Positions 27,697 to 45,340 of a stretch of 64,000 nt of DNA are shown here, piece after piece (within the stretch, counting starts at the first letter, position 1; each line of letters opens with the position of its first letter). The notes under the pieces were generated by a model. That model had not been told where the DNA came from, did not search any database, and saw nothing but the letters and a program-made list of their open reading frames with translations. The translations under genes and the position numbers were made by a program. Source of the DNA: Candidatus Brachybacterium merdavium (GTDB lineage Bacteria > Actinomycetota > Actinomycetes > Actinomycetales > Dermabacteraceae); assembly GCA_019118275.1 (NCBI GenBank), contig DWZH01000069.1, positions 1 through 64,000 on the forward strand, read 5' to 3'.

Positions 27697-27759
27697 CATC
27701 GAGCTCTGCGATGTCGTTGGCACCGGGGCTCTATATCCACAACATCGCAGAGCTCGATG
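27697..27759. repeat. Palindromic repeat family, copy A
   Basis: CATCGAGCTCTGCGATGT pairs with its near-exact inverse before 27759; the core from GAGCTC to GAGCTC is 55 bases (27701-27755). The outer arm matches the other six copies in the window, while the loop differs. Single copy, 300 bases upstream of the DUF559-type gene. Confidence 0.85.
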
Positions 27760-27830
27760 ATGGAAACGAGCCCTGGCGCCCCGCCAGCACCGCCACCGCT
27801 CCTCCGCCACCGCTCGAGGCACCGCAGAAT

Positions 27831-27968
27831 GGGCGTCGGTCTGCCACCGGTCGAGGGTCGTCGGTCTGCCACCGCTCGAGGGTCGTCGGTCTGCCCCCGA
27901 TGGAGGGTCGTCGGACTGCCCCCGCAGGAGGGTCGTCCGACTGCCGCCGCTGGAGGGTGTCGGTCTGG
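27831..27968. repeat. 25-bp tandem repeat, about 5.5 units
   Basis: Units of the form GGGTCGTCGGTCTGCCACCG plus five bases, drifting by a few substitutions per unit. No spacers. Lies 86 bases before the DUF559-type gene start. Confidence 0.8.
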
Positions 27969-28053
27969 GGAGGAAAGGGGTCCCGCGAGGCTCTGGCCTG
28001 GAGACTGTGGATGAGAACGGCACAGCTCGCTCGCGGGTGGACAAAGTGGGCCC

Positions 28054-28998
28054 ATGTCCCGTCGGCTCGAGCCCTTGCCCCCAGCCCTGGCGTTCGCGGT
28101 CTTCACGGCCGCGGAAGCCAGAGCTGCGGGCGTGAGCGCGCAACGGCTGCGTGGATCGGACATCACCCGGCTGGGATGGGGCGTCTACAGCCGAGAGGAC
28201 TATCAGCTGACGGAGCGCGCGATCGTGCAGGCGTACGGCCGCAGCGATCCCGCCGTGGTCGCTCACGGATTCACTGCGGCGCGCGCTTGGCGCCTACCGC
28301 TTCCGTTCACCGACGTCCACTGGGAGAACGAGGGAGTCCGCTCCCCCGTACACCTGAACAGCACCGCCTCGCGACGACGCAGCGGCAGCCTGGTCCGCTG
28401 GAGCAGCTTCGCCCTGTCACCGGAGGAGACAGCCAGCTCGCACGGGATGCTGCTGACCGCGCGCGTCCGCACCTGGATGGATCTGGCACCGCGCCTCAGC
28501 CATGACGACCTCGTCCGCATCGGGGACCATCTGGTGCGGCATCCGCGGCCCAGGTACGAGCACCGCCACGCTCCCTACGCCACCCCTGCCCAGCTGGAGC
28601 AGCTCCTCCGCGAGCACCGCGGGCGCGGGGCACGCAAACTCCGCGAGGTGTTGAGGGACGTCCGGGTCGGAGCCGACTCCCCAGCCGAGACGACGCTGCG
28701 CCTCGCGATCCTTCGGGCCGGGCTGCCAGTCCCTCACCTGAACGTCTTCCTCCGCGCCGGCGGCGCCAGCCTCGGCCAAGCCGACCTCTCCTGGCCCGAA
28801 TGGAAGGTGTGCGTCGAGCACGAAGGTCCCAGCCACCTCGATCGTGACCAGCAGGACCAGGACATCCAGCGCGGCGAACGGCGGCGTCACCACGGGTGGA
28901 TCGAAGTGCAGACCACCGCCAAGGATCTGCGCGGCGGCTGCGCTCGAGGACTGCGGCGCATCACCGAAGCGCTTCGGCGGCAGGGGTGGAGGGGCTGA
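28054..28998 (+). CDS. DUF559/AbiEi-like protein with endonuclease-fold C-terminus
   Basis: Protein of 314 residues of a type common in actinobacteria. The N-terminal third resembles the DNA-binding region of AbiEi-type antitoxins (AAEARAAGVSAQRLRGSDI, TRLGWGVYSREDY). The last 110 residues look like a Vsr/DUF559 nuclease fold: SPAETTLRLAILRAGLPVP, ADLSWPEWKVCVEHEG with the Asp and Glu of the PD-(D/E)XK type, then QDIQRGERRRHHGWIEV. Role is not established; such proteins are often called antitoxin-like or endonuclease-like. No toxin gene adjoins it. It is flanked by members of the palindromic repeat family on both sides. Confidence 0.75.
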   Translation: MSRRLEPLPPALAFAVFTAAEARAAGVSAQRLRGSDITRLGWGVYSREDYQLTERAIVQAYGRSDPAVVAHGFTAARAWRLPLPFTDVHWENEGVRSPVHLNSTASRRRSGSLVRWSSFALSPEETASSHGMLLTARVRTWMDLAPRLSHDDLVRIGDHLVRHPRPRYEHRHAPYATPAQLEQLLREHRGRGARKLREVLRDVRVGADSPAETTLRLAILRAGLPVPHLNVFLRAGGASLGQADLSWPEWKVCVEHEGPSHLDRDQQDQDIQRGERRRHHGWIEVQTTAKDLRGGCARGLRRITEALRRQGWRG

Positions 28999-29123
28999 GC
29001 GAGGTCGGTTCGGGCTCTCCGCTCGTCGAACGTCCATGTCGGTCTCTGGCCCGAGGTGGGTTCGCCCGATCTGCGCCGCGCCCGGGACCGACCGGGGTCC
29101 GCACGGGGAACCGCACGGCACGC

Positions 29124-29177
29124 GACATCTGCGAAGTGGTGGGGTCGCAAGCCCATAGCAACACGTTCGCAGAACTC
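29124..29177. repeat. Palindromic repeat family, copy B
   Basis: 54-base copy running from GACATCTGCGAAGTGG to TTCGCAGAACTC, with imperfect outer arms and an inner GGGGTCGCAAGCCC hairpin. Paired with copy C 69 bases further on. Confidence 0.85.
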
Positions 29178-29190
29178 GGTGGGACGCGCC

Positions 29191-29253
29191 GTCCCGGCCG
29201 GGGCGAGCTCTGTCCCGGCCGGGGCGAGCTCTGTCCCGGCCGGGGCGAGCTCT
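29191..29253. repeat. 21-bp triple tandem repeat joined to copy C
   Basis: Three identical units GTCCCGGCCGGGGCGAGCTC plus T at 29191, 29212 and 29233. The last bases form the start of palindrome copy C, so the repeat appears to have arisen by duplication of that copy's left edge. Copy E at 34991 has one such unit only. Confidence 0.85.
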
Positions 29254-29300
29254 GCAAAGTGGTGGGTTCGCGAGCCCATAGCAACCACTTCGCAGAGCTC
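29247..29300. repeat. Palindromic repeat family, copy C
   Basis: 54 bases from GAGCTCTGCAAAGTGG to CCACTTCGCAGAGCTC with an inner GGGTTCGCGAGCCC hairpin. Identical over its length to copy E at 34991-35044 as far as I can read it. Confidence 0.9.
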
Positions 29301-29661
29301 GGCGGGTCGGGGGCCGGGGGCCGTGGGCCGCGGGCCGGGGGCCGGGGGCCGCGGGGCCGCTTCCCACTCGTCACCTCCGCCTGGTCTCTCCTTGGGGACC
29401 CGACGCCTCCGGCTTCTTCCCGCGCATCTCACACGCTTCTGGCGTGACCGGGAGCAACGTGCATCCTAGAATCCTCTATGAAATCCCTAAGGTCATCTAT
29501 GGCCCTCGCGTGGTGACGCGCGAGCTGACCTTGCCCGATCCCCCAAGATTCCGTCGGACCCCGTCGAACCTCGCCGGGCCCCATCTGATCCCGCCGCACT
29601 GGCAAACACTGACGCACCTGCCGCCCCTGACGTACTCACCTCACGAACTCTGGAGCCTCTG

Positions 29662-31191
29662 ATGACCGATCTCAGCCCCGTCACCCGCCGCACGCTGCTG
29701 CTCGGAACCGGCACAGTCGCCGCCCTCACGCTGGCCGCCTGCGGTGGTGGCAGCGGATCGGGCGCCTCGGATGCCGGCGGCGGGGGCGGTGACGAGGAGA
29801 TCATCATCGGCTCCACCAATGAGCCCACCGGCCTGCAGCGCAATGTCGGCGGCTCCTCCGGCATCTCCGAGACGATGTCGCGCAACGTCTACGAGGGCCT
29901 GACCGCGATCGATGACTCCGGCGAGGTCATCGACCTGCTCGCAGAGTCGGTCGAGGTCTCCGAAGACGGTCTGACCCATACTTTCACCCTGCGCGAGGGA
30001 GTGACCTTCCACGACGGCAGCCCGCTGACTGCGCAGGATGCGGCATGGTCGATCGCGGAGACCATCTCGGAGGAGTCGCTCTCGGCCCGCGCATCGGATC
30101 TGCGCGTGATCAACGACATCGAGGCCGCTGACGATCGGACCCTGGTGCTCACCCTGGACCACCGCAGCGCCTCGCTGAGGTTCTTCCTGGCCTCGGTGAC
30201 GATCGTGCGCGATGGCGACACCGAGAACACCTCCGAGAACGGCACCGGCCCCTATCGCATGCAGGAGTGGGTCCAGGGGGACCATCTGACCTTGGTCCGC
30301 AACGACGACTACTGGGGCGAGCCAGCCCTGAACACGGGCGTGACCTTCCGGTTCTTCGCCGATGAGACCGCGATGAACAACGCCCTTCGCGCCGGTGAGC
30401 TGGACCTGGTGATCCAGCAGGAGAGCCCGGATCAGCTGGGCCAGTTCGAGGATGATCCCACCTACACGATCACCGAGGGCAACTCGATCCGGAAGTGGGT
30501 GTGGACCTTCAACAACCAGATGGAGCCGTTCACCGACGTGCGTGTGCGGCAGGGACTGTACAAGGCGATCAGCCGTGACGCGATCCTGACCGCCGTGTGG
30601 GGAGATCGCGGCGAGGTCATCGGGTCGATGCCACCGGTGCCCGAACCCTGGTACGACGACTCCTTCGCCCAGATCCACGCCTATGACCCCGACGCTGCCA
30701 CAGCGCTGTTGGAGGAGGCGGGCGCGACCGATCTGTCGTTCGCTCTGACCTATGTCGCCGGTTCCACCGAGGAGCTCATCGTCCAGCAGATCGCCTCGGA
30801 CCTGTCGGCCGTGGGCGTGACCGTCGAGCTCGACGCGATCGATGATTCCACCTGGTACGAGCGCGTGTACTCGGAGAAGAACTACGAGACCACCCTGATG
30901 AACCACAACAATCCGCGCGACGTGCTCTGGTACGCCAACCCCGACTTCTACTGGCAGTACGACAGCCCCGAGGTCCAGGAGCTGGCGGTCGCCGCTGAAG
31001 AGGCCGAGAACGAGGACGCACAGACAGACCTCATCCACGAGCTGGCCGAGATCCTCGCCGAGGAGGCGCCCTCGGCGTGGCTGTTCATGTCGCCGCAGAT
31101 CCGGATCGCTCGCGAGGGCGTCACCGGGTTCTCTCCGGACAAGAACGCCGAGCCCTTTTACGTCGCAAGCATCGTGCGCGAGTCGGCGTGA
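29662..31191 (+). CDS. ABC transporter substrate-binding lipoprotein, family 5 (peptide/nickel class)
   Basis: Binding lipoprotein of 509 residues. The N-terminus has a Tat-like RRTLLLG and a lipobox ending at Cys27 (LTLAAC), then a Gly/Ser linker. Family signatures include SRNVYEGLTAID near residue 73, HTFTLREGVTFHDGSPLTAQ near 107 and ENGTGPYRMQEWVQGDHLTL near 193. It begins a complete five-gene operon of the Dpp/Opp/Nik class. Short, dense operon spacing (GTGA overlap with the first permease) indicates co-translation. The ligand may be a peptide, nickel complex or other small molecule; no neighbouring enzyme points to one. Confidence 0.93.
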   Translation: MTDLSPVTRRTLLLGTGTVAALTLAACGGGSGSGASDAGGGGGDEEIIIGSTNEPTGLQRNVGGSSGISETMSRNVYEGLTAIDDSGEVIDLLAESVEVSEDGLTHTFTLREGVTFHDGSPLTAQDAAWSIAETISEESLSARASDLRVINDIEAADDRTLVLTLDHRSASLRFFLASVTIVRDGDTENTSENGTGPYRMQEWVQGDHLTLVRNDDYWGEPALNTGVTFRFFADETAMNNALRAGELDLVIQQESPDQLGQFEDDPTYTITEGNSIRKWVWTFNNQMEPFTDVRVRQGLYKAISRDAILTAVWGDRGEVIGSMPPVPEPWYDDSFAQIHAYDPDAATALLEEAGATDLSFALTYVAGSTEELIVQQIASDLSAVGVTVELDAIDDSTWYERVYSEKNYETTLMNHNNPRDVLWYANPDFYWQYDSPEVQELAVAAEEAENEDAQTDLIHELAEILAEEAPSAWLFMSPQIRIAREGVTGFSPDKNAEPFYVASIVRESA

Positions 31192-32270
31192 GCGCGGGAG
31201 CAGGGCCGAGCGGGCAGGGCCTGCCCGGCAACACCACCGCTCCCGAGACGGGGGACGCCGAGGCGAAGGACGCCGCCCCAGACGACCGTCGCCGGCCCAT
31301 GGGGACACTTGAGTTCTTCGCCAGCCGGATCGGTCTGCTGCTGCTCGCCATCCTTCTGACCTCGATGATCGTGTTCCTGCTGCTGCGGGTGCTGCCCGGC
31401 GATCCGGCCGGTGCACTGCTGGGAGCGGGCACGACCGATGAGCAGCTCGAGCAGCTGCGCAGTCAGCTGGGCGCCGACGACCCGTTGCCGGTGCAGTACA
31501 TCGCGTGGCTCGGTGAGTTCCTGTCCGGTTCGACCACCTCATTCGTCTCGCAGGAGACCTTTGGTGACCTGGTCGCCCGCCGCGCCACCATCACGGTGCC
31601 GCTCTCGCTGGCCGCCTTTGCACTGTCGATCCTGGTCTCCTTCCCGCTGGGCACGCTGGCGGCGGTGCGTCGTGACTCCCCCGTCGGGCTGGCTGTCTCG
31701 GCGCTGTCCCAGGTCGGGGTGGCGGTACCGATCTTCTGGGTCGGTGTGATCCTGATCTGGCTGTTCGCTCTCGAAGCAGGCACGTTGCCCTCCGGCGGGT
31801 TCCCACGGCAGGGCTGGGCCGATCCGGTCGCCGCCGGGCGCGCCCTGGTACTGCCCGCCATCACGATCGCAGTCGCCATGAGCTCGGTGCTGATCCGCTA
31901 CGTGCGTTCGGCGGTGCTGGACGTGCTGGATTCCGATCACATGCGCACCGCCCGCTCGCTGGGCTACTCCGGCCCGCATGCGATGTTGCGGCACGGTCTG
32001 CGGCATGCTGCGGTGCCGGTGGTCGCCATCCTGGGCATCGAGCTGGCCACGTCCCTGCTGGGTGCCGTGGTGGTCGAGAACGTGTTCGCGCTGCCTGGGC
32101 TGGGCACACTGCTGCTGGACTCGGTGACCGCGCGCGACCTGCCCATCGTGCAGAACCTGGTGGTGCTGCTGACCGCAGTAATGCTGCTGACCAACGCCGG
32201 GGTCGACATCCTCCAGCGCGCCATCGACCCGCGCCTGCGCACCGGCCGACGGGAAGGACGACGGGCATGA
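31188..32270 (+). CDS. ABC transporter permease, DppB type
   Basis: Permease of 360 residues from a GTG that overlaps the binding-protein stop (GTGA); a later ATG at 31299 (MGTLEFFASR) would remove a disordered 37-residue leader and cannot be ruled out. Six helices; typical features are LLRVLPGDPAGALLGAGTT near residue 62, RRATITVPLSLAAFALS and the EAA-like loop MRTARSLGYSGPHAMLRHGL near 253. Partner of the DppC-type permease that follows with an ATGA overlap. Confidence 0.9.
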   Translation: MSAGAGPSGQGLPGNTTAPETGDAEAKDAAPDDRRRPMGTLEFFASRIGLLLLAILLTSMIVFLLLRVLPGDPAGALLGAGTTDEQLEQLRSQLGADDPLPVQYIAWLGEFLSGSTTSFVSQETFGDLVARRATITVPLSLAAFALSILVSFPLGTLAAVRRDSPVGLAVSALSQVGVAVPIFWVGVILIWLFALEAGTLPSGGFPRQGWADPVAAGRALVLPAITIAVAMSSVLIRYVRSAVLDVLDSDHMRTARSLGYSGPHAMLRHGLRHAAVPVVAILGIELATSLLGAVVVENVFALPGLGTLLLDSVTARDLPIVQNLVVLLTAVMLLTNAGVDILQRAIDPRLRTGRREGRRA

Positions 32271-33130
32271 GCACGATCTCCGAGCGCGCCTCGTCGACAA
32301 CGACGGAGACTCGCCGCCCCCTCTCCCCCTCGCTGATAGTGGGAACCGCGCTGGTCGGTGCCACCGTGCTGCTGGCGGCAGTCTCCCTCGTGTGGACCCC
32401 TCATGCCCTGACCGACGTCGGCTCCGGAGGAAGGTTGGCCCGCCCCTCTGGCGAATTCTGGCTGGGAACCGACCGACTCGGCCGCGATGTGTTCACCCAG
32501 TTCATGGCCGCTGCCAGGTCCGCCCTGATCGTCGCGACCTGCTCGGTCGCCATCGCCACCCTGCTCGGCACCGTGATCGGGGTGGCCGCGGCCGCCTCCA
32601 TCCGAGTGGTCGACGAGCTCCTGTCGGCCCTGGTCGACGTGTTGATCGCCTTCCCCACCCTGCTCCTGGCGATGCTGGTGGTCACGGTGCGGGGAGCATC
32701 CCTCAGCTCGGCAATCCTGGCGATCGGCATCGCGGGCTCCGCCGTGATCGCCCGCGTGACTCGCGTGAACACCGCCCGGGTGCTCCGTGAGGAGTATGTG
32801 ACCGCCGGTATCGTCGCCGGCAGCGGCTGGAGCGGCCTGATCCGCCGTCACGTCGTACCCAACGTCGCCCCCACCCTGCTGGTGCAGATGACACTGCTGG
32901 GCGGCGCCTCGATCCTGGCCGAGGCGTCCCTGTCCTATCTCGGATTGGGGCCGGCACCGCCCGCTCCGAGCTGGGGACGGATGCTACTGGAGGCACAGTC
33001 CACTGTGAGCTCCCAACCGTGGGCCGCGATCGCCCCGGGCCTGGCCATCGCCGCCACCGTGCTCGGACTGAACCTGCTCGGTGACGGGCTGCGCGAGACC
33101 TTCGACCCGCAACTGAGGAGGGCCCGATGA
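32267..33130 (+). CDS. ABC transporter permease, DppC type
   Basis: Permease of 287 residues. A first helix at about residue 25 (LIVGTALVGATVLLAAVSLV), then HALTDVGSGGRLARPSGEFW and LGTDRLGRDVFTQFMAAARS, the family hallmark. The EAA loop reads REEYVTAGIVAGSGWSGLIR near 167, followed by the ASLSYLGLGPAPPAPSWGRM signature. Overlaps both neighbours by four bases. Confidence 0.93.
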   Translation: MSTISERASSTTTETRRPLSPSLIVGTALVGATVLLAAVSLVWTPHALTDVGSGGRLARPSGEFWLGTDRLGRDVFTQFMAAARSALIVATCSVAIATLLGTVIGVAAAASIRVVDELLSALVDVLIAFPTLLLAMLVVTVRGASLSSAILAIGIAGSAVIARVTRVNTARVLREEYVTAGIVAGSGWSGLIRRHVVPNVAPTLLVQMTLLGGASILAEASLSYLGLGPAPPAPSWGRMLLEAQSTVSSQPWAAIAPGLAIAATVLGLNLLGDGLRETFDPQLRRAR

Positions 33131-33945
33131 CCCTCGAGATCACCTCTCTGGGCGTGCGCACCTCCTCCGGCCGCGAGCTGCTGCGAGACATCAGCTGGTC
33201 CGTGCCCACGGGCGGACGTCTGGGCATCATCGGCGAATCCGGCTCGGGCAAATCCCTGACCGCCCAGGCGATCCTCGGACTGCTGCCCCGCGGCATGGAC
33301 GTCACAGGTTCCGTGCAGCTCGACGGCGAGGAAATGCTGGGCCGGTCCGAGAAGTCGCTGCGCCAGCTCCGCGGCCGGCGCATCGCCATGGTCTTCCAGG
33401 AACCGTTGACGGCGCTGGACCCGCTGATGCCCGTCGGGCGGCAGATCCAGGGACCACTGCACCTGCACACCGAGCTGCGTGGCGCCGCGGCCCGCAAACG
33501 GATGTCTCAGCTGCTGGAGCAGGTGGCTCTGCGTGACCACGAGCGGATCCTGCGCTCGTACCCGTGGGAGCTGTCCGGCGGGCAGAGGCAGCGCGTGGCA
33601 CTCGCGATGGCGCTCGCCTGCGAGCCGGACGTGCTGATCGCCGACGAGCCCACCACCGCCCTCGACGTCACCCTGCAGGACGAGATCCTCACCCTACTGG
33701 CTGATCTGATCGAGCGATCCGGGGTGACACTGGTCTTCGTCTCCCACGACCTGCCGGTAGTCGCCCGGGTGGCCGACGATCTGGTGGTCATGCGCGACGG
33801 CGAGGTGGTCGAGACCGGCTCGGCACGCGAAGTGCTCACCATCCCCACCAGTGACTACGCGCGCAGACTGGTCGAGTCAGCGCGGTCGGTCACCGCTCTG
33901 CCGACGCTCGGGGATCCGACGGCCGACGAGGAGGAGACCCCGTGA
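33127..33945 (+). CDS. ABC transporter ATP-binding protein, DppD type
   Basis: Cytoplasmic ATPase of 272 residues. Walker A GESGSGKS (about residue 38), Q-loop MVFQEPLTALDPLMP, signature LSGGQRQRVALAMAL (about 150), Walker B DVLIADEPTTALD and the switch His in FVSHDL. Like its partner it is trimmed compared with DppD proteins, which often carry an iron-sulfur tail; that Cys-rich tail is absent here. Powers the two permeases encoded upstream. Confidence 0.94.
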   Translation: MTLEITSLGVRTSSGRELLRDISWSVPTGGRLGIIGESGSGKSLTAQAILGLLPRGMDVTGSVQLDGEEMLGRSEKSLRQLRGRRIAMVFQEPLTALDPLMPVGRQIQGPLHLHTELRGAAARKRMSQLLEQVALRDHERILRSYPWELSGGQRQRVALAMALACEPDVLIADEPTTALDVTLQDEILTLLADLIERSGVTLVFVSHDLPVVARVADDLVVMRDGEVVETGSAREVLTIPTSDYARRLVESARSVTALPTLGDPTADEEETP

Positions 33946-34745
33946 CCGAGACACCCGCCTTTGGCCCCGTCCACGCCGTCGCCCCTGTACCCGTGCTCGC
34001 CATGCGCGATGTCCACAAAAGCTTCGGCCGCGGTATCCGCACCACTCCCGTGCTCCACGGCATCGACCTGGAGATCACCGCCGGGAGCAGCCTCGGCATC
34101 GTCGGCGAATCCGGAGCCGGTAAAACCACGATCCTGTCCCTGCTGATGGCCCTGTCCTCTCCCACTTCTGGCACGATCGAGTTCAACGGGGCCCCGCTGC
34201 GCCGCGGACGCGTCGGACGGATGTCCGAGTTCCGCCGCGCCGTGCAGCTGGTGTTCCAGGACCCCCGCTCCTCCCTCAACCCGCGCATGAGCGTCGGACG
34301 GATCATCCGTGAACCTCTCGAGTCCCTCGACATCCCCGGTGACCACCGGGCGCGCGTGGCCGACCTGCTCGAGTCGGTCGGTCTGGAACCAGGCATGGAG
34401 TCGCGATTCCCGGGTGAGTTCTCCGGCGGACAACGCCAGCGCATCGCGATCGCCCGCGCACTGGCCCCACGTCCCGAGGTGCTTGTGGCCGACGAGCCGG
34501 TCAGTGCACTGGACGTGTCGGTGCGCGCCCAGATCGTCGAACTGCTCGCCCGGCTGAAGGAACAGTTCGGGATGACGCTGGTGATGGTCAGCCATGACAT
34601 CGCGATCGTCGGGCAGCTGTGCGAGGAGATGGTGATCCTACGCGATGGCCGTATCGAGGAGACCGGGCCGACACCCAGGGTGCTCACCGCCCCACGCGCT
34701 GCCTACACCCGTCGCCTGCTGGAGGCAGTCCCTCGCCTGCCATGA
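33942..34745 (+). CDS. ABC transporter ATP-binding protein, DppF type
   Basis: Second ATPase of the operon, 267 residues, GTG start overlapping the previous stop. Walker A GESGAGKT (about residue 50), VQLVFQDPRSSLNPRMSVGR, signature FSGGQRQRIAIARAL (about 163), Walker B EVLVADEPVSALD and VMVSHDI. It lacks the usual C-terminal zinc-type Cys motif of DppF. It closes the operon; palindrome copies D and E follow 165 bases downstream. Confidence 0.94.
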   Translation: MTETPAFGPVHAVAPVPVLAMRDVHKSFGRGIRTTPVLHGIDLEITAGSSLGIVGESGAGKTTILSLLMALSSPTSGTIEFNGAPLRRGRVGRMSEFRRAVQLVFQDPRSSLNPRMSVGRIIREPLESLDIPGDHRARVADLLESVGLEPGMESRFPGEFSGGQRQRIAIARALAPRPEVLVADEPVSALDVSVRAQIVELLARLKEQFGMTLVMVSHDIAIVGQLCEEMVILRDGRIEETGPTPRVLTAPRAAYTRRLLEAVPRLP

Positions 34746-34800
34746 GGCGCCACGCGCTCCCGATGCGCTCCGAGCTCCCTCACGGTCGAGCACCTCGTGG

Positions 34801-34909
34801 GCGAGCCTCTCGCTATCGAGCCCCTCACCATCGAGCCCGTGGCTATCGAGCCTCCTCACCATCAAGCCCCTCACCATCAAGCCGCTCACCATCGAGCCTC
34901 CTCACAATC
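34801..34909. repeat. 15-bp tandem repeat
   Basis: Seven to eight units of ATCGAGCCCCTCACC with variants (ATCAAGCC, GTGGCT), ending directly at palindrome copy D. The 15-base period recurs in coding minisatellites of the window. Confidence 0.8.
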
Positions 34910-34963
34910 GACATCTGCGAAGTGGTGGGTTCGCGGGCCCATAGCAACAAGTTCGCAGAGCTC
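34910..34963. repeat. Palindromic repeat family, copy D
   Basis: 54 bases from GACATCTGCGAAGTGG to TTCGCAGAGCTC with inner GGGTTCGCGGGCCC. Closest to copy B. Followed 27 bases later by copy E in the same order and spacing style as B-C. Confidence 0.88.
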
Positions 34964-34990
34964 GGTGGGACGCACCGGCCCGGCCGGGGC

Positions 34991-35044
34991 GAGCTCTGCA
35001 AAGTGGTGGGTTCGCGAGCCCATAGCAACCACTTCGCAGAGCTC
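34991..35044. repeat. Palindromic repeat family, copy E
   Basis: 54 bases, the same as copy C. Its outer arms pair over 19 bases with one A-C mismatch and a G-T near the tip, and the inner GGGTTCGCGAGCCC folds on itself, giving a nested stem. Confidence 0.9.
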
Positions 35045-35209
35045 GGTGGGCCGGGAGCCGGGGGCCGGGAGCCGGGGGCCGGGGGTCGGGGCCGCGAGGC
35101 CGCTTCCTGGAGCTCGTCGCGCCGGGTGGATTGGGAGGCCGCTGGCTTGCCTGGCCGGTCGGTGCCGACGCAGAGCACGGACCCAGCGCGCCGGGTGGGC
35201 GGGCTTGGA

Positions 35210-36838: not shown

Positions 36839-36892
36839 GACTCATCCTTCGTCGGCGAGTGAGGGTGAAACCGACGATACACAACCTTGCGA

Positions 36893-36922
36893 CAGATGAG
36901 CACCCGTCGATGCTCGTCTGAG
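36893..36922. promoter_or_regulatory. SorC-type operator before the mannitol-dehydrogenase gene
   Basis: CAGATGAGCA (36893-36902) and TGCTCGTCTG (36911-36920) are inverted copies with one mismatch, eight bases apart. The second extends to TGCTCGTCTGAG, the core found before the SorC gene at 39371 and the importer at 48045. It lies 55-84 bases before the start codon. Confidence 0.6.
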
Positions 36923-37050
36923 GGGATTATTTTTCGGCGCCGAACCGCCAGCTCGATCAGCCGCGCCATCTCGATCCGATCGCCGTCGCGATCAGCCGAA
37001 CGCCTCCCCGAGCCGACCGGCAACCTCGAGCCGGCCGTGAGCTCGGCTAG

Positions 37051-38019
37051 GGCGTGTCTCCTATTTGCGTAGCCAGGCGACGACGGCGCAGAGGACGACG
37101 CCGGCTCGGTAGGCGATGGCGTGCTTGTCATAGCGGGTGGCGATCCCGCGCCATTGCTTGGCCAGTCCGAACTGTCGTTCGACGACATTGCGGCCGGCAT
37201 AGGCGACCTGGTCGAGCGCAGGCGGGCGTCCGCCGCGAGTGCCCTTCTTCTTGCGTGAGGCGATCTCGTCGGATTTCTGGGGAATCACCGTTTTGATGCC
37301 CCTGGCGGCGAGCATCCGGCGGGTCTTGCCCGAGGAGTAGGCCTTATCCGCAACGACGGCGTCGGGCCGGATCCGGGGGCGGCCAGGCCCCAGACGGGGA
37401 ACGCGGATGTCGTCGAGGACCTCGAGGAGCATCGCGCCGTCGTGACGCTGTCCGCCGGTGAGCACGATCGCCAACGGCATTCCGTTGCCGTCGACGGCGG
37501 CGTGGATCTTGCTGCCCAGCCCGCCGCGCGAGCGCCCGATAGCGTGCCCATCAGGCTCTTCAGGAGACAGATTGTTGTGGTTCGCCGTCGCCCCCTGTGG
37601 GCTGGTCAGGACGCGTCGTGTTGGTGCCGTGCTGATGAGCTCGGTTGATCGTCGAGTCCACCGAGACCATCCACTCGATATCGCCCGCGGCATCGGCCTG
37701 CGCCATCAGCGCGGCATGGATCCGGTCCCAAACACCGAGGCGGGCGTAGAGGTAATGGCGCTTCCACACCGTCTGCCAGGGACCGAACTGCTCACGGGGA
37801 AGATCCCGCCACGGGATCCCGGTCCTGGCGCGGTAGATGATCCCCTCGACGATCTTGCGGTTGTCGTGGAAGGGACGCCCTTTGCGACCCGTGTTCGAGG
37901 GCAGCATCGGCTCGATTCGCTCCCACTGCTTGTCAGTGAGGACCTGGTGCCGAGGAGTCGTCGCGGTAGTCATCCCTCGACGTTCTCGCACGAAACAGCT
38001 CACACATAGGAGACACGCC
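37051..38019. mobile_element. IS5-family insertion sequence (IS427-like), about 970 bp
   Basis: Ends carry inverted repeats GGCGTGTCTCCTAT (37051-37064 and its inverse ending at 38019), flanked by CTAG on both sides (37047-37050 and 38020-38023), which would be a four-base target duplication; a TA duplication with ends one base longer fits equally. It sits between the mannitol-dehydrogenase-type gene and the SorC gene, both on the minus strand. The transposase reads on the minus strand and its TAG stop lies inside the left inverted repeat. Confidence 0.9.
37061..37973 (-). CDS. IS5-family DDE transposase, two frames
   Basis: The first frame (37973 to 37560) encodes the N-terminal DUF4096-like part (VLTDKQWERIEPMLPSNTGR, RTGIPWRDLPREQFGPWQTV) and the first Asp in VSVDSTINRAHQ. 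The second (37693 to 37061) encodes the rest, with AIGRSRGGLGSKIHAAVDGN, the second Asp in DAVVADKAYSS and the final Glu in NVVERQFGLAKQWRGIATRY. The shift in the 134-base overlap is of the kind used for programmed frameshifting in the IS427 group; CAGGGGGCG is a possible slip site. Both halves keep their catalytic residues, so the element may be active. Confidence 0.88.
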
Positions 38020-38076
38020 CTAGCCGTCCGCCACCTCGATTCGGCCCTCATCTCGATCAGCCACGCGCCATCTCGG

Positions 38077-39318
38077 TCAGTCGAGCAGCGCGGAGACCTG
38101 GGCGGCGAGCTCGGGCGCGAGGACGATGTCGTCGACGAGTCCGGAACGCGCGGCGGCGATGACCGCCTCGGGTTCGCCGACGGCCGGGGCTGCCGCGATG
38201 ACGCGCGCCCGGCGCAGCTGATCGGGCCGCACCCCGATCACGCGATCCTCCAGCGGGGAGTGCCAGATGGCGCCGGGCTCATCCAGCAGGATCCCGCAGA
38301 CCTCCGCGACCACGCCGGCCTCCCGGGCGCGGCGCTGCTCGTCGGCCCCGATCCGTGCCCACAGCGTCGAGGCGCCCGGCGACCAGGCACCCAGGGAGAC
38401 CACGGCGACATCGAGGGTGTCGGCCGCATCCAGCGCGGTACGCACCTCCTCCATCGAACGCAGGGAGGCGGCGACCGGGGCGGAGTCGACGATCAGGGGC
38501 GTGGGCAGCGCCCAGACCTGGCCGCCGGCATGCGCACCGAGGGTGTGGACGAGAGCGGAGGACTGTGCGGTGGAGTGGCCGGGCGCGCTGAGCGGACCGA
38601 CGAGCTGGACGACGTCGGCCTGGGGCAGCTCCTCGAGGGCGTCGGGCAGGTGCATGAGGGTGCGGGACCAGGCCACGCCGAGCCGGCCGCCCTCGCGCAG
38701 GCGCTGCGGCAGGAGCGTGGCGACCTGGCGGGCGATCGCCACGCGCATCGATTCCCCGGGGCGGGCGGTGGCGACGGTGACCGAGGCGATGCCCAGTCGC
38801 TGCGCGAGCAGGGTGTGGTCGTGACCGGCGGCGGTGGGGTCGACGATCTGGATGCGCACGATGCCCTCCTCGCGCGCTTCGTCCAGCAGCCGAGCTACCT
38901 GGAAGCGGGACAGGCCATGACGGCGGGCCAGTTCCACCTTCGAGTGGCCGTCGAGGAAGTGCTCGGCCGCGAGGGCGACCTTGAGGGAGACTTCGGGGTC
39001 CGTGTCCCCATGAGCGCGCCCGCCGGACCCCTCATCCGCCGGCGGTCGCCCGTCGGACGGACGGGCGCCGGACGAACGCGTGTCGGACGGACCGGCACCG
39101 GACGGACGGGCATCGGACGGACGGGCATCGGATGGACGCGCATCGGACACACGCGTAACGGATCGACGTCCATCGGACGGGCGAGGATCGGACCCACCTG
39201 CATCGGGTCGGGCCGCATCGGACGGGCGCACATCAGCCATTCCGACGGCGGACGAGCGGCCCTCGAACGCTTCGGCGGCGGATCGCCCCGGATCCGACGC
39301 CTGGTGGCCCTGTCCCAT
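38077..39318 (-). CDS. SorC/DeoR-like sugar-binding transcriptional regulator (copy 1)
   Basis: Regulator of 413 residues. A disordered N-terminus (about 1-95) consists largely of ARPSD-like five-residue units encoded by a 15-base minisatellite. The HTH follows (HFLDGHSKVELARRHGLSRF, QVARLLDEAREEGIVRI), then the SorC effector domain, related to phosphosugar isomerases (LGVAWSRTLMHLPDAL, VVSLGAWSPGASTLW). The start ATG 39318 is preferred over a GTG at 39351 because AAAAAGGGGA lies six bases upstream. A TGCTCATCTGTGAGTA site at 39371-39386 suggests self-regulation, and a matching site precedes the mannitol-dehydrogenase-type gene, its likely target. Confidence 0.9.
   Translation of the reverse strand: MGQGHQASDPGRSAAEAFEGRSSAVGMADVRPSDAARPDAGGSDPRPSDGRRSVTRVSDARPSDARPSDARPSGAGPSDTRSSGARPSDGRPPADEGSGGRAHGDTDPEVSLKVALAAEHFLDGHSKVELARRHGLSRFQVARLLDEAREEGIVRIQIVDPTAAGHDHTLLAQRLGIASVTVATARPGESMRVAIARQVATLLPQRLREGGRLGVAWSRTLMHLPDALEELPQADVVQLVGPLSAPGHSTAQSSALVHTLGAHAGGQVWALPTPLIVDSAPVAASLRSMEEVRTALDAADTLDVAVVSLGAWSPGASTLWARIGADEQRRAREAGVVAEVCGILLDEPGAIWHSPLEDRVIGVRPDQLRRARVIAAAPAVGEPEAVIAAARSGLVDDIVLAPELAAQVSALLD
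39053..39232. repeat. 15-bp coding minisatellite in the SorC gene
   Basis: About twelve degenerate units of GGACGGACGGGCATC, read on the minus strand as ARPSD-type pentapeptides. The period of 15 keeps the frame, so copy number can change without breaking the gene. Confidence 0.85.
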
Positions 39319-39360
39319 GTGATCCCCTTTTTCTGACGACTCCGACGGCACACATCTGCG

Positions 39361-39513
39361 CTACACCGGTTGCTCATCTGTGAGTATATGGGCCAGCTCA
39401 TGCACGATTGAGAAGCTGCGGCTCGCATGTGAGGTGACGGCGTCGATCACCCGCACGACGCCCTGAAGCAGAGCGCGGAACTCTGTCGACTCATAGCGAC
39501 GGCTGAGGCTCAT
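39361..39513 (-). CDS. Small ORF with an HEXXH motif (ImmA/IrrE-like remnant)
   Basis: Fifty-residue frame from ATG 39513 to TAG 39361. It contains RSFSIVHELAHIL, which resembles the zinc HEXXH helix of DUF955/ImmA metallopeptidases, but the protein ends seven residues later, so the rest of that domain is missing. Its ATG overlaps the TGA of the frame upstream (ATGA). Probably a fragment of a decayed gene rather than an active peptidase. The SorC-type site at 39371-39386 lies inside its 3' end. Confidence 0.4.
   Translation of the reverse strand: MSLSRRYESTEFRALLQGVVRVIDAVTSHASRSFSIVHELAHILTDEQPV
39371..39386. promoter_or_regulatory. SorC-type operator before SorC copy 1
   Basis: TGCTCATCTGTGAGTA shares TGCTCRTCTGWG with the site at 36911 and is partly palindromic. 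It lies 53 bases upstream of the SorC start codon, where it would allow self-regulation. Confidence 0.5.
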
Positions 39514-40146
39514 GACGCCGCTCGACCATGCCCCTCGGCGATCTCCATCTGACGTCCATCCCCGCTCGCCACCGCATCCGCACGTATCAGCAGCGGGGGA
39601 ACAGTCAGGTCGCCGCCCAACCCCTCGGGAGCCCAGAATCGCTCCCGGAGGACCACGCGCCCTTGCGCCGAGACGGGCATCCTCACACGTCGGACGATGT
39701 CCTGCCAGGGTGGCGTTCTGTACAGCACCGTCTCCTCGGCCCGCAGTCCAGCATCGAAGCCCTGCCGGACGAAATGCTCGCGATGGCCGTTCGAGACCGG
39801 CACGCGCTTCATGGACGGGCCTCCTGCCGTCGACCCACAGGGTGAGCCCGCGACCTTCGATCCAGGCCTTGTCCCCGCTGTCGATGCACTGACCCCTCTG
39901 CGACGAAGCTCCTATCCCTCATGGCGTGTCACATGAGGAAGCGCCCGGATCCAGCGCGCAGGGGCATCGTCGCCGATCCTTTCCACACGCTTCGTAGACG
40001 GAGTGCCGGGCGCGCGTCTTCACGTCGACGAGAAAGCGTTGACCTCCGTCCGGATCCGCGCCCGGACTGTTGTGCCCCTCCACCGCCTCCAGCTCGAAGC
40101 CCATGCCCTGCAGCTGGTCGGCGATGATGCTCTCCAACGCCGACAT
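39510..40146 (-). pseudogene. Decayed AbiEi-like/nuclease-like gene
   Basis: Two out-of-frame pieces appear to belong to one lost gene. From ATG 40146: SALESIIADQLQGMGFELEA and GQRFLVDVKTRARHSVYEAC, like the N-terminal nuclease-type domain of some type IV antitoxin-like proteins. From about 39812 to 39510: VRMPVSAQGRVVLRERFWAP and VPPLLIRADAVASGDGRQME, like the end of those proteins. The middle is missing and the last residues look frameshifted (GMVERR is readable one base off). The second piece has a GGAGG and ATG of its own at 39812, so a short peptide may still be made. Assignment is tentative. Confidence 0.45.
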
Positions 40147-40310
40147 GTTCACGTGTTCCATCTGTTCACAGTGCGTGAACGCGCCGCTTTCGTGAACAGC
40201 CGGCTCCGTCAGAGCGCGCATTCAGCGCGACGCCGGTGCGCGACGCCGGTGCGCGGGGCGGCAGCGCACCGGGCGACGGCAGGACCGCGCTCGGACCCAT
40301 GCCCGGGGGC

Positions 40311-42785
40311 TCAGTCCCCAGGCACCTCGGTCTCGATCTCGGTGAGCCAGGCGCGGGCGGTGGCATCGGCGGGCATGCGCCAGTCACCGCGCGGGGACAG
40401 CGAACCGCCCGCCAGCACCTTCGGGGCGTTGGGCAGGGCGGAGCGCTTGAACTGGTTGGCGAAGAACCGTCGGCAGAACACGGTCAGCCACTTCTTGATC
40501 TCCGCACGGGAGTAGGCGCTCTTGTCGGCGTCGGCGTAGCCGGCCGGCCAGCCCCCGGCGTCGATGTCACCCCAGGCCTGGTGGGTCAGGTAGGCGATCT
40601 TGGCCGGTCCGTACCCGCGGCGCAGCAGGTGGTAGAGGGTGAAGTCGTGAAGCGCGTACGGGCCGATCGAGCTCTCGGTGGACTGGGCCTGCTCGCCCTC
40701 GCGGGCCGGGATCAGCTCGGGGCTGATCTCGGTGTCCAGGACGGCCTGCAGCACCTGGGAGGCCTCGGAGCCGAAGAGGTCCTCGGCGATCACCCAGCGG
40801 ATCAGGTGCTGGATCAGCGTCTTGGGGACGCCGGCGTTGACGCCGTAGTGGGACATGTGGTCGCCGACGCCGTAGGTCGCCCAGCCCAGCGCCAGCTCGG
40901 ACAGGTCCCCGGTCCCGACCACGATGCCGCCGTGGTGGTTGGCGAGGCGGAACAGGTAGTCGGTGCGCATGCCGGCCTGGACGTTCTCGAAGGTGACGTC
41001 GTAGACCTCCTCGCCACGGCCGAAGGGATGGCCCATGTCGGTGAGCATCTGGGTGGCGGCGGGCCGGATGTCGATGGTCTCGAAGTTGGCGCCGATGGCC
41101 CTGGACAGCAGCTCGGCGTTGGAGCGGGTGTGCTCAGTGGTCGCAAACCCCGGCATCGTGTAGGTGAGGATCTCGGAACGGTCGCGGCCCAGCAGGTCCA
41201 TCGCCCGGGCGCACACCAGCAGCGCGTGGGTGGAGTCCAGTCCGCCGGAGACGCCGAGCACGGGGCAGGTGCCGCCGGGTTGGCCGCCCCCGATCGCCGA
41301 CAGCCGGCGCACCAGGCCCGCGACCTGGATCGAGAACGCCTCGTAGCAGTCCTGGGCCAGGCGGGCGGGGTCCTCGGGCACGAAGGGGAAGCGGTCGAGC
41401 TTGCGGCGCAGCGGCCCGGTCCCGGGGCGTTGGGGCTCGGCGCCGGGACGGTCTGCACCAGGACGCTGGGGCTCAGTGCCGGGACCGTCGGCACCGGGAC
41501 GCCGGGGTTCGGCGCCGGAACGGTCGGGGGCGGGACCGCCGGTGTCGGGGCGATCAACACCGGGACCGTCGGCGACCCCGAACAGCCGCACCTCCGGGCC
41601 ATGGGTGAAGTCCTCGAGCCGCTCGGCGTGAGCGCGGCGGTTGTCGTCGAAGGTGTTCATGCGCCGGCGCTCGGCCACGATCCGGTCCAGGTCGATGTCG
41701 GCGATGGTGGCGCGCGGGCCCTGTGGGAAGCGCTCGCTCTCCCCCAGCAGGTCACCGCATTCGTAGATGAGGGTCTGCCCGTCCCAGGCCAGGTCGGTGG
41801 TCGATTCGCCCTCGCCGGCGGCGGCATAGAGGTAGGCCACCTGGCCGCGCGCGGAGGCGGAGGCGACCATCAGGGTGCGCTCATCGGCCCGGCCGACGGT
41901 GATCGGCGAGCCGGACAGGTTGGCGACGACGGTGGCGCCGGCGAGCGCCGCTTCGGCCGACGGCGGGATCGGCACCCACATGTCCTCGCAGATCTCCACG
42001 AACAGGTTCAGGCCGGGCACGTCCGGCACCGGGACGATCTGTCGCGAGGAGATCCACGCATCACGGTCACCGACGCGCACGTGCTCGTGGACGCAGTCGT
42101 CGGCCGCGGCGAACCAGCGGTGCTCCTGGAACTCGCGGTACGTGGCGAGGTTCTGCTTGGCGGTGATGGCGACGATCTCGCCGCGGTGGATGGTGATCGC
42201 ACAGTTGTACAGGCGGTTGCGGTGAGTGGCGCGCAGCGGGGCGCCGAGCACGATGATCGGCAGCAGCTCACGGCTGGCCTCGACCACCGTGGCGATCGCC
42301 TGCTCGGTATCCTCCAGCAGCGGCTCCTGCATCACCAGGTCCTCCAGCGAGTACCCGGTCAGCGACAGCTCGGGGAAGACCGCCAGCCCGACCTGCTGGT
42401 CGTGGAGCTCTCGCAGCACCTCGAGGTGGCGCTGAGCATTGGTGGCGGGATCGGCGAGCGCGACCGGGAGGGTGATGGCCGCCGCGCGCAGGAAGCCGTG
42501 GTCGTAGATCGAGGCATGGGGGTCGGCCGGGTCGTCGTGGGAGACGGTGGGCAGGGCGGGGTCCGTTCGGCTCAGCCCCTGTGGGGTGGTGGGGACGCTG
42601 CCCGCGGGCACCGGCGCCGACGCCGCGGAATCCGCAGGGTGCGCGGGTGCGGAGGCCGGCGGCTCGTTCTGCCCCGGCGGCAGCGAGCCGTCCTGGCCGG
42701 AGGGGCGCACACCACCGTGGCCGGCGGACTGCGAACCGTCCGGGCCGGAAGGCTGCGGGGCTGCGGGCTGCGACGCGGAGCTCAT
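40311..42785 (-). CDS. nadE: Glutamine-dependent NAD+ synthetase
   Basis: Two-domain enzyme of 824 residues making NAD+ from deamido-NAD+, ATP and glutamine. The N-terminal nitrilase-fold glutaminase has Glu in [17 protein letters not shown], Lys in [18 protein letters not shown] and Cys in [14 protein letters not shown]. The synthetase half has the P-loop [14 protein letters not shown] near residue 513 and a [16 protein letters not shown] signature. The protein is about 130 residues longer than usual: a Pro/Ser/Gly-rich leader of some 85 residues and an insertion of about 45 residues near 405-455 made of [12 protein letters not shown]-like repeats between the two domains. Stands alone. Confidence 0.95.
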
Positions 42786-43052
42786 GCCTTGAGAGTAATG
42801 GAGCCCGCAGCGCTCACGGGCGCCCCCGACCGGACGGCAGACGCGCCACCCAGGATGTGCTCGTCACCGGGTCCGTGCGGGCCCCCGACCGGACGGCAGC
42901 AACCCCGTGCGAGCGAGGCATCCGGCACACCGGCCGCGAGGCCGCTGGCTCCGCGGCCGACGTATGGGGCAATGGACGGCACCTGCGGCCGTCGGCCGTA
43001 CTAACGTTGGGCCAATGACCGACCCAAGGAATGCTTCGCTCGAGGGGGCCCG

Positions 43053-43916
43053 ATGAAACCCCGTCGGCCCCTGGTGGGGTGGCTGCTGATCGCGCCCAGC
43101 CTGATCGGCGTGACCGCCTTCCTGATCCTGCCGGTGATCCTGGCCTTCGTGGTCTCCCTGTTCCGCTGGGACCTGCTGGGCACGCGCGAGTTCACCGGCC
43201 TGGACAACTACACCACCCTGATCACTGGTGGCGCGCTCACGAACTCACTGCTGGTCACAGCGATCTTCACGCTGATCTCGGTGCCGGTGTCGCTGGCGCT
43301 CGGACTGGGACTCGCCACCCAGCTGGTGCGCGCGGTGCCCGGCTCGGCCCTCGTGCGCGTGGTGGTGGTGATCCCCTGGGTGAGCGCACCTCTGGCGCTG
43401 GGTGTGGTGTGGAAGTGGATCTTCCAGCCCTCGGCAGGCGCGTTGAACCAGGTGCTGGGCGTGAGGATCGAGTGGTTGACCGACCCGTCGCTGGCCCTGC
43501 CGGCGGTGGCCTTCGTCGCGATCTGGCAGAACATCGGCTACACCTCCCTGTTCTTCCAGGCCGGCCTGAGCAAGATCCCCACGTCGATCTACGAGGCGGC
43601 CACGCTGGACGGCGCGAACGCGGCCCAGTCGCTGTGGCACATGACAGTCCCGCTGCTGCGCCCGACCACCTTCTTCCTGGCGGTCACCCAGGTGGTCGCC
43701 AGCTTCCAGGTGTTCGACATGGTCTACGCCCTGACCGGCGGCGGCCCGCAGCACCGCACCGAGGTCATCGCGACCCTGGTCTACAACGAGGGCTTCGGCG
43801 CCTCCCGTCTGGGCCGGGCGAGCGCGGTCGCGGTGATCCTGTTCCTGATCCTGGTGGTGATCACGCTGATCCAGCAGCGCTACTTCTCCCGCCGCATCAC
43901 CTACGACATGAGCTGA
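43053..43916 (+). CDS. Carbohydrate ABC transporter permease, MalF type
   Basis: Inner-membrane permease of 287 residues. First helix at about residue 9 (GWLLIAPSLIGVTAFLILPV); EAA loop IYEAATLDGANAAQSLWHMT near 182. First gene of a permease-permease-binding protein operon, an order less common than binding protein first. No ATPase gene in the cluster, so a shared MsiK-type ATPase is inferred. The 267 bases upstream hold only a GC-rich stretch and a TAACGTT site near 43002 of unknown meaning. Confidence 0.92.
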   Translation: MKPRRPLVGWLLIAPSLIGVTAFLILPVILAFVVSLFRWDLLGTREFTGLDNYTTLITGGALTNSLLVTAIFTLISVPVSLALGLGLATQLVRAVPGSALVRVVVVIPWVSAPLALGVVWKWIFQPSAGALNQVLGVRIEWLTDPSLALPAVAFVAIWQNIGYTSLFFQAGLSKIPTSIYEAATLDGANAAQSLWHMTVPLLRPTTFFLAVTQVVASFQVFDMVYALTGGGPQHRTEVIATLVYNEGFGASRLGRASAVAVILFLILVVITLIQQRYFSRRITYDMS

Positions 43917-43928
43917 GAGGAGGAGACC

Positions 43929-44936
43929 ATGACACCCACCGACGCCCACCCCGCGACCAGCGGTGGCTCCCGCACCGGGGCCGACAACGGCTCTCGCCCC
44001 GGGGTCGGCTCTTCAACCGGCACCGGTACCGGTCGGAGACCCGTGACCTCCCGGTCTGGTCGGGGGTCCGCCCCGTCCCGGCCGGCAGGCCGACGCTCGT
44101 CCTCGCTGCACTCGCGCCGTCTGCTCGGCTACGCGGGCACCTACCTGGTCCTCGCCCTCGCCGCGCTGATCACGCTCGCCCCGTTCCTGGTCTCGGTGCT
44201 GACGGCCTTCACCTCCACCCGGCAGTTCGCGCAGCAGGGCCCGCTGTCCCTCCCGGACCCGCCGACGCTGGACAACTTCCTGCACCTGTTCACTTCGCCC
44301 GACGGCTTCGTCACCCCGGTCGCGGTCACGGTGCAGATGGTGGCGCTGATCCTGGCCGGGCAGATGGTCTTCTCCGTGCTGGCCGCCTACGCCTTCTCCC
44401 ACCTGCGCTTCCCCGGCCGCGACATGCTGTTCTGGGTGTACGTGGCCACACTGATGGTGCCGCAGGTGGTCGTGGTGGTGCCGCTGTATCTGATGATGAG
44501 CGAGGTGGGTCTGCGCAACACCTTCTGGGCGCTGGTGCTGCCGTTCGTGCTGGGCTCGCCGTACGCGATCTTCCTGCTGCGCGAGAACTTCCGCAGCGTG
44601 CCCGCCGAGCTGATGGACGCGATGCGCATCGACGGCGCCGGCACCCTGCGTCTGCTGTGGCACCTGGTGGTGCCGCTGAACCGCCCCATCATCGTCACTC
44701 TGGTGCTGATCACGGTGGTCACCCACTGGAACAACTTCATGTGGCCGATGGTCATCACCTCCGGGCCCGAGTGGCGGGTGATCACCGTGGCCACCTCCGC
44801 CCTGCAGTCGCAGTACAACAACAACTGGACCCTGGTGATGGCCGGGACCACCCTGGCGATGTTGCCCCTGGTGCTCCTGATGATCGCCTTCCAGAAGCAG
44901 ATCATCCGCTCCGTCGGCGAGACCACCCTGCGCTGA
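43929..44936 (+). CDS. Carbohydrate ABC transporter permease, MalG type
   Basis: Permease of 335 residues; GAGAGGAGGAGACC gives a strong ribosome site 12 bases after the previous stop. The first 55 residues are a hydrophilic Gly/Ser/Arg-rich tail before helix 1 (YAGTYLVLALAALITLAPFL). EAA loop PAELMDAMRIDGAGTLRLLW near 230. Works with the MalF-type permease upstream. Two palindromic repeats separate it from the binding-protein gene. Confidence 0.92.
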   Translation: MTPTDAHPATSGGSRTGADNGSRPGVGSSTGTGTGRRPVTSRSGRGSAPSRPAGRRSSSLHSRRLLGYAGTYLVLALAALITLAPFLVSVLTAFTSTRQFAQQGPLSLPDPPTLDNFLHLFTSPDGFVTPVAVTVQMVALILAGQMVFSVLAAYAFSHLRFPGRDMLFWVYVATLMVPQVVVVVPLYLMMSEVGLRNTFWALVLPFVLGSPYAIFLLRENFRSVPAELMDAMRIDGAGTLRLLWHLVVPLNRPIIVTLVLITVVTHWNNFMWPMVITSGPEWRVITVATSALQSQYNNNWTLVMAGTTLAMLPLVLLMIAFQKQIIRSVGETTLR

Positions 44937-44978
44937 CCCGTGGCCCAGGGGCCGAGCGCGGGCCCCAATCCCGCAGGC

Positions 44979-45032
44979 GAGCTCTGCAATGCTGTTGTTA
45001 TCGACCCGCTTACCCGCAACTTCGCAGAGCTC
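44979..45032. repeat. Palindromic repeat family, copy F
   Basis: 54 bases from GAGCTCTGCAATGCTG to CAACTTCGCAGAGCTC, 40 bases after the permease stop. Outer arm as in the other copies; the loop (TTATCGACCCGCTTACC) is different from B-E. Confidence 0.85.
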
Positions 45033-45071
45033 GGTGCTGGTCATGCGCGAGCGATGGGCACCGGGGGCATC

Positions 45072-45125
45072 GACCTCTGCGAAGTCGGGGTTTCAAGCGG
45101 GCATAACCACCACATTGCAGAGCTC
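45072..45125. repeat. Palindromic repeat family, copy G
   Basis: 54 bases from GACCTCTGCGAAGTCG to CCACATTGCAGAGCTC, 39 bases after copy F. Loop sequence TTTCAAGCGGGCATAACC again differs while arms and length are kept. Confidence 0.85.
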
Positions 45126-45340
45126 GCCAGCGACACGCCCCGGACCTCGGCATGGGGCTCCCCCGCGCTTCCCCGCTCCCACTCCCCACACCCCGCCTCC
45201 CGCTCGCCCGCAGTTCACGATCCGACATCGCTCCTGCCCCTTCCCGGCCCCGGCGGGCAGAATGGGGTTGCAACCAACCCAGCCTCCGCATCTGTGCCTG
45301 GGCACTCTCGCGGACGCGGCCTGCCTCAAGGAGATCGTCC

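What the first reader, a model, noticed from the sequence alone, without database searches (positions are those of the whole stretch)
27697..45125. Seven copies of a 54-55 bp nested palindrome, REP/BIME-like
Copies at 27701, 29124, 29247, 34910, 34991, 44979 and 45072 all run from GAGCTCTGC-like to GCAGAGCTC, keep a length of 54-55 bases and keep arm pairing, while loops differ (three loop types). Six lie in pairs just after a gene. None fits the genes nearby. I know no named family with this arm. No transposase of the RAYT type is seen in the window.
Basis: seen in the sequence. Interest (0 to 1): 0.7.

Follow-up and report, generated by a model that had tools for sequence, protein, structure and literature searches.

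The report
Widespread actinobacterial gene-end palindrome repeat
Seven near-copies of a 60-letter DNA palindrome in this stretch belong to a family that recurs at gene ends in several related bacterial groups, where the two arms change together so that the hairpin survives; it resembles known repeats and terminators but lacks the features that define them.

Summary
In detail: seven copies, far above chance. The unit is 60 bp, not 54-55. The genome has 22 strong places; same-genus genomes hold up to roughly 40, and the geometry recurs in other families of the order and two genomes of another family of the class. Copies favour gene 3' ends: 57 of 142 genus copies lie between convergent genes (25.8 expected), 13 between divergent ones (49.1 expected). 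Arms covary, also at orthologous sites. Sites are mostly shared between two species, yet near-identical copies with unrelated flanks occur. REP membership fails: no GT[AG]G foot, no Y1 transposase in 38 of 38 genus genomes. A U-tract terminator fails too (0 of 226 flanks). Best reading: a bidirectional hairpin marking or protecting transcript 3' ends, possibly kin of the mycobacterial TRIT motif, whose paper could not be read. Function is inferred. Equal G·U and A·C mismatches (86 against 84) argue somewhat against RNA-level selection.

The parts
27698..27758 (.). copy 1 (61 bp), single; 295 bp before ORF 28054-28998 and upstream of an aspartate kinase gene on the minus strand
29121..29180 (.). 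copy 2, first of a pair; most degenerate (14 of 24 Watson-Crick pairs)
29244..29303 (.). copy 3, second of the pair; 59 of 60 identical to copy 5
34907..34966 (.). copy 4, first of a pair between convergent genes (ABC ATPase and mannitol dehydrogenase)
34988..35047 (.). copy 5, second of the pair
44976..45035 (.). copy 6, 39 bp after an ABC permease gene
45069..45128 (.). copy 7, second of the pair, before a solute-binding-protein gene
29192..29254 (+). three tandem 21-bp units TCCCGGCCGGGGCGAGCTCTG; the last runs into the left arm of copy 3, so each carries the first letters of the element
   Evidence: read directly

Best explanation
The seven copies belong to a family of about 60-bp palindromes (arms about 22-24 bp, variable loop; nearly fixed letters CGA at each outer end, CG at arm positions 12-13, G at 19) found in several actinobacterial families. 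Shown by computation: geometry, 3'-end placement, covariation of arms, sites mostly shared between two sister species, near-identical copies at unrelated sites. Suggested, not settled: partial homogenisation within genomes. Inferred: the palindrome acts at the ends of transcription units in both directions, as a hairpin that stops 3'-to-5' decay after Rho-type or collision termination, or that itself helps polymerase stop without a U tract. Selection for the hairpin, perhaps helped by template switching between arms, keeps arms complementary; the agent that copies it between loci is unknown.
For: 57 of 142 genus copies lie between convergent genes (25.8 expected by available length, p 1e-9; 30.2 by number of gaps) and 13 between divergent ones (49.1; 38.6); 66 of 82 codirectional copies (all genomes) lie nearer the upstream gene's 3' end. 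In other families several copies sit within about 25 nt of both stop codons. In 39 diverse sequences 91.9% of cells pair, 231 cells changed on both sides against 75.6+-7.1 in shuffles, covariation 0.627 against 0.197 in shuffles and at most 0.112 in slid versions. At orthologous sites both sides of a pair differ together 30, 34, 15 and 26 times against 6.9, 9.7, 1.6 and 12.7 expected; Watson-Crick pairing is kept in 28, 29, 12 and 11 of them. In two collinear 200-kb stretches 10 of 11 copies of one species map to an interval with a copy in the other, and the eleventh is the second of a tandem pair whose first is shared.
Against: On the transcript strand of 82 codirectional copies G.U and A.C are equal (86 against 84), where selection on RNA pairing should favour G.U. 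The power of this test is unknown: control hairpins showed no significant excess at any of four settings (27/22, 41/36, 28/18, 31/23) and the tRNA control had 3 usable tRNAs. No U tract: 0 of 226 downstream flanks have 5 T in 8. A paper whose title I saw only in a reference list says mycobacterial polymerase requires a U tract. No transcript data were available. In G014/G016 only 11 of 26 double differences keep Watson-Crick pairing, and within the 15 own copies covariation is weak (19 cells against 14.0+-2.9). Fixed length and copying between loci are not needed for a plain RNA hairpin. 13 genus copies lie between divergent genes.
Confidence: 0.45

Rival explanations
1. A RAYT-free, REP-like mobile hairpin: a non-autonomous element copied as single-stranded DNA by an unidentified enzyme, tolerated mainly at gene 3' ends. 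Any role in transcription is secondary.
For: 50 paralogue pairs share at least 54 of 60 letters at separate loci, with identity at background just outside; 47 of the 50 come from two sister genomes and the 2 own-genome pairs have related flanks. The best paralogue is at least as similar as the orthologue in 8 of 16, 6 of 10, 7 of 9 and 10 of 17 cases. G.U equal to A.C fits a DNA-level hairpin. Tandem and paired copies occur.
Against: No Y1 transposase domain, no GT[AG]G foot, no target-site duplication above control (18 of 178 against 23 of 178 with random partners). Mean paralogue identity (44.8, 44.3, 45.1, 40.5 of 60) is below orthologue identity (56.4, 50.3, 48.0, 49.2) in all four comparisons, and the best paralogue is picked from many on either strand. 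No clear isolated new insertion in the 200-kb comparison: of 14 G016 copies only one weak hit (score 20.8) maps to a site without a copy, and two could not be mapped. No match in plasmids for two copies or in phages for one.
Confidence: 0.3
2. A palindromic binding site on double-stranded DNA for a conserved protein (nucleoid, roadblock or recombination factor).
For: Nearly fixed letters at fixed spacing across families and no strand preference in mismatches.
Against: Positions that vary between copies still match between the two arms of a copy, which a protein reading fixed letters does not require.
Confidence: 0.12
3. Mutational self-correction only: replication template switching keeps any long quasi-palindrome symmetric, without selection for the hairpin.
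For: Double Watson-Crick changes at one locus, 31 of 80 of them transversions; no G.U preference.
Against: Does not explain conserved letters across families, the 3'-end bias or near-identical copies at unrelated loci. The letters around the changed pairs occur in other copies of the same genome in 50 and 70 of 80 cases for the two partners; in neither for 3.
Confidence: 0.1

Closest known systems
TRIT motif (Gardner et al. 2011, RNIE; content recalled, name seen in a passage of PMC3526491)
   Same: Recalled: a conserved hairpin motif enriched at gene ends in a mycobacterium, without the usual U tail. Two genomes of another family in the class carry our element between convergent genes; one is mycobacterium-like if the recalled identity of its best PDB match is right.
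   Different: The TRIT alignment could not be read or searched, so identity is untested. Arms here differ from genus to genus.
REP / REPIN / BIME elements with RAYT (TnpA-REP)
   Same: Short intergenic palindromes, genome-specific arms, clusters and pairs, 3'-end location, long persistence (passages).
   Different: No GT[AG]G foot, no Y1 domain in any of 38 genus genomes, longer single stem (22-24 bp) with larger loop; similar layout across families.
U-tract-less hairpin terminators of actinobacteria (passages of PMC8355165)
   Same: Hairpin after the stop codon without a U trail.
   Different: Described there by structure; here letters and total length are nearly fixed and some copies are near-identical within a genome.
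Bor, Ype and Efa repeat families (passages of PMC1590033)
   Same: Stem-loop repeat families, with Ype and Efa preferentially near gene 3' ends.
   Different: Described in Bordetella, Yersinia and Enterococcus; not compared by sequence here.

Membership tests
REP (RAYT-associated) | GTAG or GTGG tetranucleotide 0-2 nt 5' of the hairpin foot | tested here: not met
   5 of 356 feet against 6 at control positions; definition from passages of PMC6006769
REP (RAYT-associated) | Y1/HUH transposase (RAYT) in the genome | tested here: not met
   PF01797: 0 of 1 own, 0 of 38 genus genomes; rings in 5 of 14 control genomes. Only this one domain model was searched, and not outside the genus
REP (RAYT-associated) | basal stem 7-20 nt, loop 2-5 nt or bulged second stem | tested here: not met
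   24 pairs and a roughly 12-nt centre fit the alignments; individual folds vary, some with short terminal loops
REP (RAYT-associated) | multiple extragenic, genome-specific copies, often clustered | tested here: met
   2 of 178 copies overlap a predicted gene; genome-specific arms; clusters
canonical intrinsic terminator | T/U run directly after the stem | tested here: not met
   0 of 226 flanks with at least 5 T of 8, 6 with at least 4
TRIT | match to the published TRIT covariance model | not testable with these tools
   paper and model not held
TRIT | location at gene termini in mycobacteria | tested here: inconclusive
   one place each in two genomes of one family, both convergent; only 220 and 180 kb of them scanned in depth, chosen to include the known place
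MITE / insertion-sequence remnant | target-site duplication; half-sites at the ends of longer elements | tested here: not met
   direct repeats 18 of 178 against 23 of 178 with random partners; half-sites with up to 2 mismatches in the own genome all lie in whole palindromes (own genome only)

The most novel reading that the evidence does not exclude
An old class of dispersed DNA hairpins in actinobacteria that is kept at gene ends and partly homogenised within genomes by a copying or correction system unrelated to RAYT, so that arm sequences turn over quickly while position, length and pairing stay fixed.
Probability: 0.3. Interest if true: 0.78.

Novelty: new variant of a known kind. Interest (0 to 1): 0.6.

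Why it matters
Recalled: high-GC actinobacteria have few U-tract terminators, and how many of their transcripts end is open. A hairpin family with nearly fixed letters and compensated arms at gene ends gives a concrete, testable set of candidate sites. Turnover of the arms at fixed positions, without a RAYT, asks what copies or corrects them.

Tried and rejected
Rejected: chance; restriction to the window; insertion-sequence ends (no solo half-sites at up to 2 mismatches in the own genome); phage or plasmid origin for the copies tried (two copies against plasmids, one against phages; two viral-contig pattern hits, have 41-42% GC and lack the inner motif; a second pattern found 0); known Rfam family (one sub-threshold match elsewhere in the stretch). 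The scan of named genomes found 11 stretches. I read one (L030), which by eye has matching outer arms only; the other ten were not read.

Dropped or weak rows: L018 (arms do not match). G374 L167 and G779 L182 lie in predicted genes, and G132 L166 and G061 L168 lack the outer CGA motif; I treat these as chance. G652 L180 was not classified. Of the 17 other-genus genomes with a match, stretches of 13 were fetched; G105, G213, G293 and G327 were not looked at. The letters printed for L187 are not the match, because that locus is cut. Two of the 178 copies overlap predicted genes and score low (24.8, 20.3).

Led nowhere: control hairpins and tRNAs for the G·U test; a clean empty site; no structure prediction was run, there being no candidate protein. 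Paper searches; their listings show no description of this element, in this open-licence library only. Papers: passages of PMC3526491, PMC6006769, PMC8049555, PMC1590033 and PMC8355165; word searches without hits in PMC3733652 and PMC3686654; the rest seen only as search listings with abstract starts. After rechecking I lowered the novel reading from 0.35 to 0.3, because orthologues are on average closer than paralogues.
Full report
Observation. The seven copies are in the sequence where stated. A scan built from half-site letters plus pairing finds exactly these seven in the window, with scores 51.0-68.3. The reversed window gives none above 15, and 100 random first-order windows gave 2 hits above 15 with a maximum of 24.6. 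In 978,739 bases (the window and loci from L189 on as then held) the scan gave 67 hits above 20 and 0 in the reversed control. The matrix comes from 83 family members, so this measures separation, not independent discovery. Single copies fold better than shuffles to different degrees, DNA z from -6.9 to -1.6.

The window's genome. A model of 15 own copies finds 22 strong places in the 3.66-Mb, 137-contig assembly and one weak one at E 0.15. Half-sites with up to 2 mismatches all lie inside whole palindromes. The pairs at 29121-29303 and 34907-35047 read as duplicates of one segment. Copies 3 and 5 differ at one base of 60 and share flanking letters (22 and 34 of 40).

Relatives. By a second model at E up to 1e-4, with a stricter filter that scored only 13 candidates per genome, 28 of 396 genomes of the order match: 11 of the genus and 17 of other genera; 17 further genus genomes are listed with none. 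I looked at 13 of the 17 and judged 3 of them chance (G374, G132, G061). G014 and G016 give 76 and 88 strand-wise matches at E up to 0.01, so roughly 38 and 44 places. A third model at E up to 1e-6 gives 63, 59 and 62 strand-wise matches in G025, G029 and G017, and 31 in G069 of another family. In a phylum sample 6 of 396 genomes match at E up to 1e-6: the own genome, G051 of the order, G480 and G724 of another family of the class, and G652 and G779. G779's match lies in a predicted gene and G652's was not classified; those of G480 and G724 lie between convergent genes. A G724 neighbour gene matches PDB chain 5kei over 535 of 537 residues; that this is a mycobacterial MbtA is recalled. Of 178 non-redundant copies from 23 genomes (21 from the own genome), 154 are 60 bp and 21 are 61 bp, the scan allowing only 58-62.

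Place. Of 178 copies, 72 lie between convergent, 82 between codirectional and 13 between divergent genes; 9 are at edges and 2 overlap a predicted gene (genes by a home-made codon-usage caller). For 142 usable genus copies: convergent 57 against 25.8 expected, divergent 13 against 49.1, codirectional 72 against 67.1. The background came from the window and 40 stretches chosen because they hold copies. Among codirectional copies, 66 of 82 lie nearer the upstream gene's end.

Pairing. In 64 sequences, 22 of 27 pairs show double changes and 245 cells changed on both sides against 101.8±9.1 in shuffles. In 39 more diverse sequences it is 231 against 75.6±7.1. Cells count sequences, not events. In the 15 own copies alone the signal is weak (19 against 14.0±2.9). 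At orthologous sites (16, 10, 9 and 17 pairs for G025/G029, G025/G017, G029/G017 and G014/G016) both sides differ together 15, 30, 34 and 26 times against 1.6, 6.9, 9.7 and 12.7 expected; 12, 28, 29 and 11 of these keep Watson-Crick pairing. The three-genome comparisons share loci and are not independent.

Turnover. Orthologous copies average 56.4, 50.3, 48.0 and 49.2 of 60 identical in the same order, while BLAST-aligned parts of the 500-bp flanks, genes included, are 93.0, 92.9, 91.2 and 88.4% identical. The best paralogue in the same genome is at least as close as the orthologue in 8 of 16, 6 of 10, 7 of 9 and 10 of 17 cases. Against homogenisation: mean paralogue identity is 44.8, 44.3, 45.1 and 40.5, below the orthologues every time. 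So homogenisation is partial at most.

Dispersal against stability. Fifty paralogue pairs at separate loci share at least 54 of 60 letters, and identity falls to background just outside the element; 27 are in G029, 20 in G025, 2 in the own genome (both with related flanks) and 1 in G051. In two collinear 200-kb stretches 10 of 11 G014 copies map to an interval with a copy in G016, some intervals being coarse; the other is the second of a tandem pair. Of 14 G016 copies 11 map to an interval with a copy, one weak hit (20.8) does not, and two could not be mapped. New sites therefore look rare and local copy number changes.

Mechanism. Transcript-strand mismatches are 86 G·U and 84 A·C in 1,968 pair cells of codirectional copies. 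That gives no sign of RNA-strand selection, but my controls could not calibrate the test. No flank has a U tract (0 of 226). A hairpin that marks 3' ends after factor-dependent or collision termination by blocking exonucleases, on either strand, fits place, symmetry and the missing U tract; this is inference. A mobile DNA hairpin fits the copying and the lack of G·U preference. Both could hold: passages on REP sequences report roles in termination and RNA stability besides mobility.

Known kinds. REP membership was tested and fails on three defining features (and stem and loop size). TRIT remains the most likely named relative and is untested. Hence a new variant of a known kind, with a real chance that it is an extension of TRIT.

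Noticed in passing
window 29192-29254: Three tandem 21-bp units that each carry the start of the element's left arm, suggesting local slippage at the element border.
   Followed up: partly
window 28054-28998: A 314-aa ORF between copies with no Pfam or NCBIfam match and atypical codon use.
   Followed up: partly
window 27830-27960 and 34800-34905: Degenerate short direct repeats (GTCGTCGGTCTGCC-type and ACCATCGAGCC-type) next to copies, seen by eye.
   Followed up: no
L113 2000-2277 and G016:C1:2211426-2211649: Tandem triples of the element with spacings of 105-113 bp and 82 bp.
   Followed up: partly
L199 16661-16720 and L200 11524-11584: The element between convergent genes in two genomes of another family of the class, in one after a salicylate-AMP-ligase-like gene; the two share an ACGCCAGGGT stretch in one arm.
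   Followed up: partly
L123 1579-1865: Two element copies in a G030 locus with further arm-like letters in their flanks, seen by eye.
   Followed up: no
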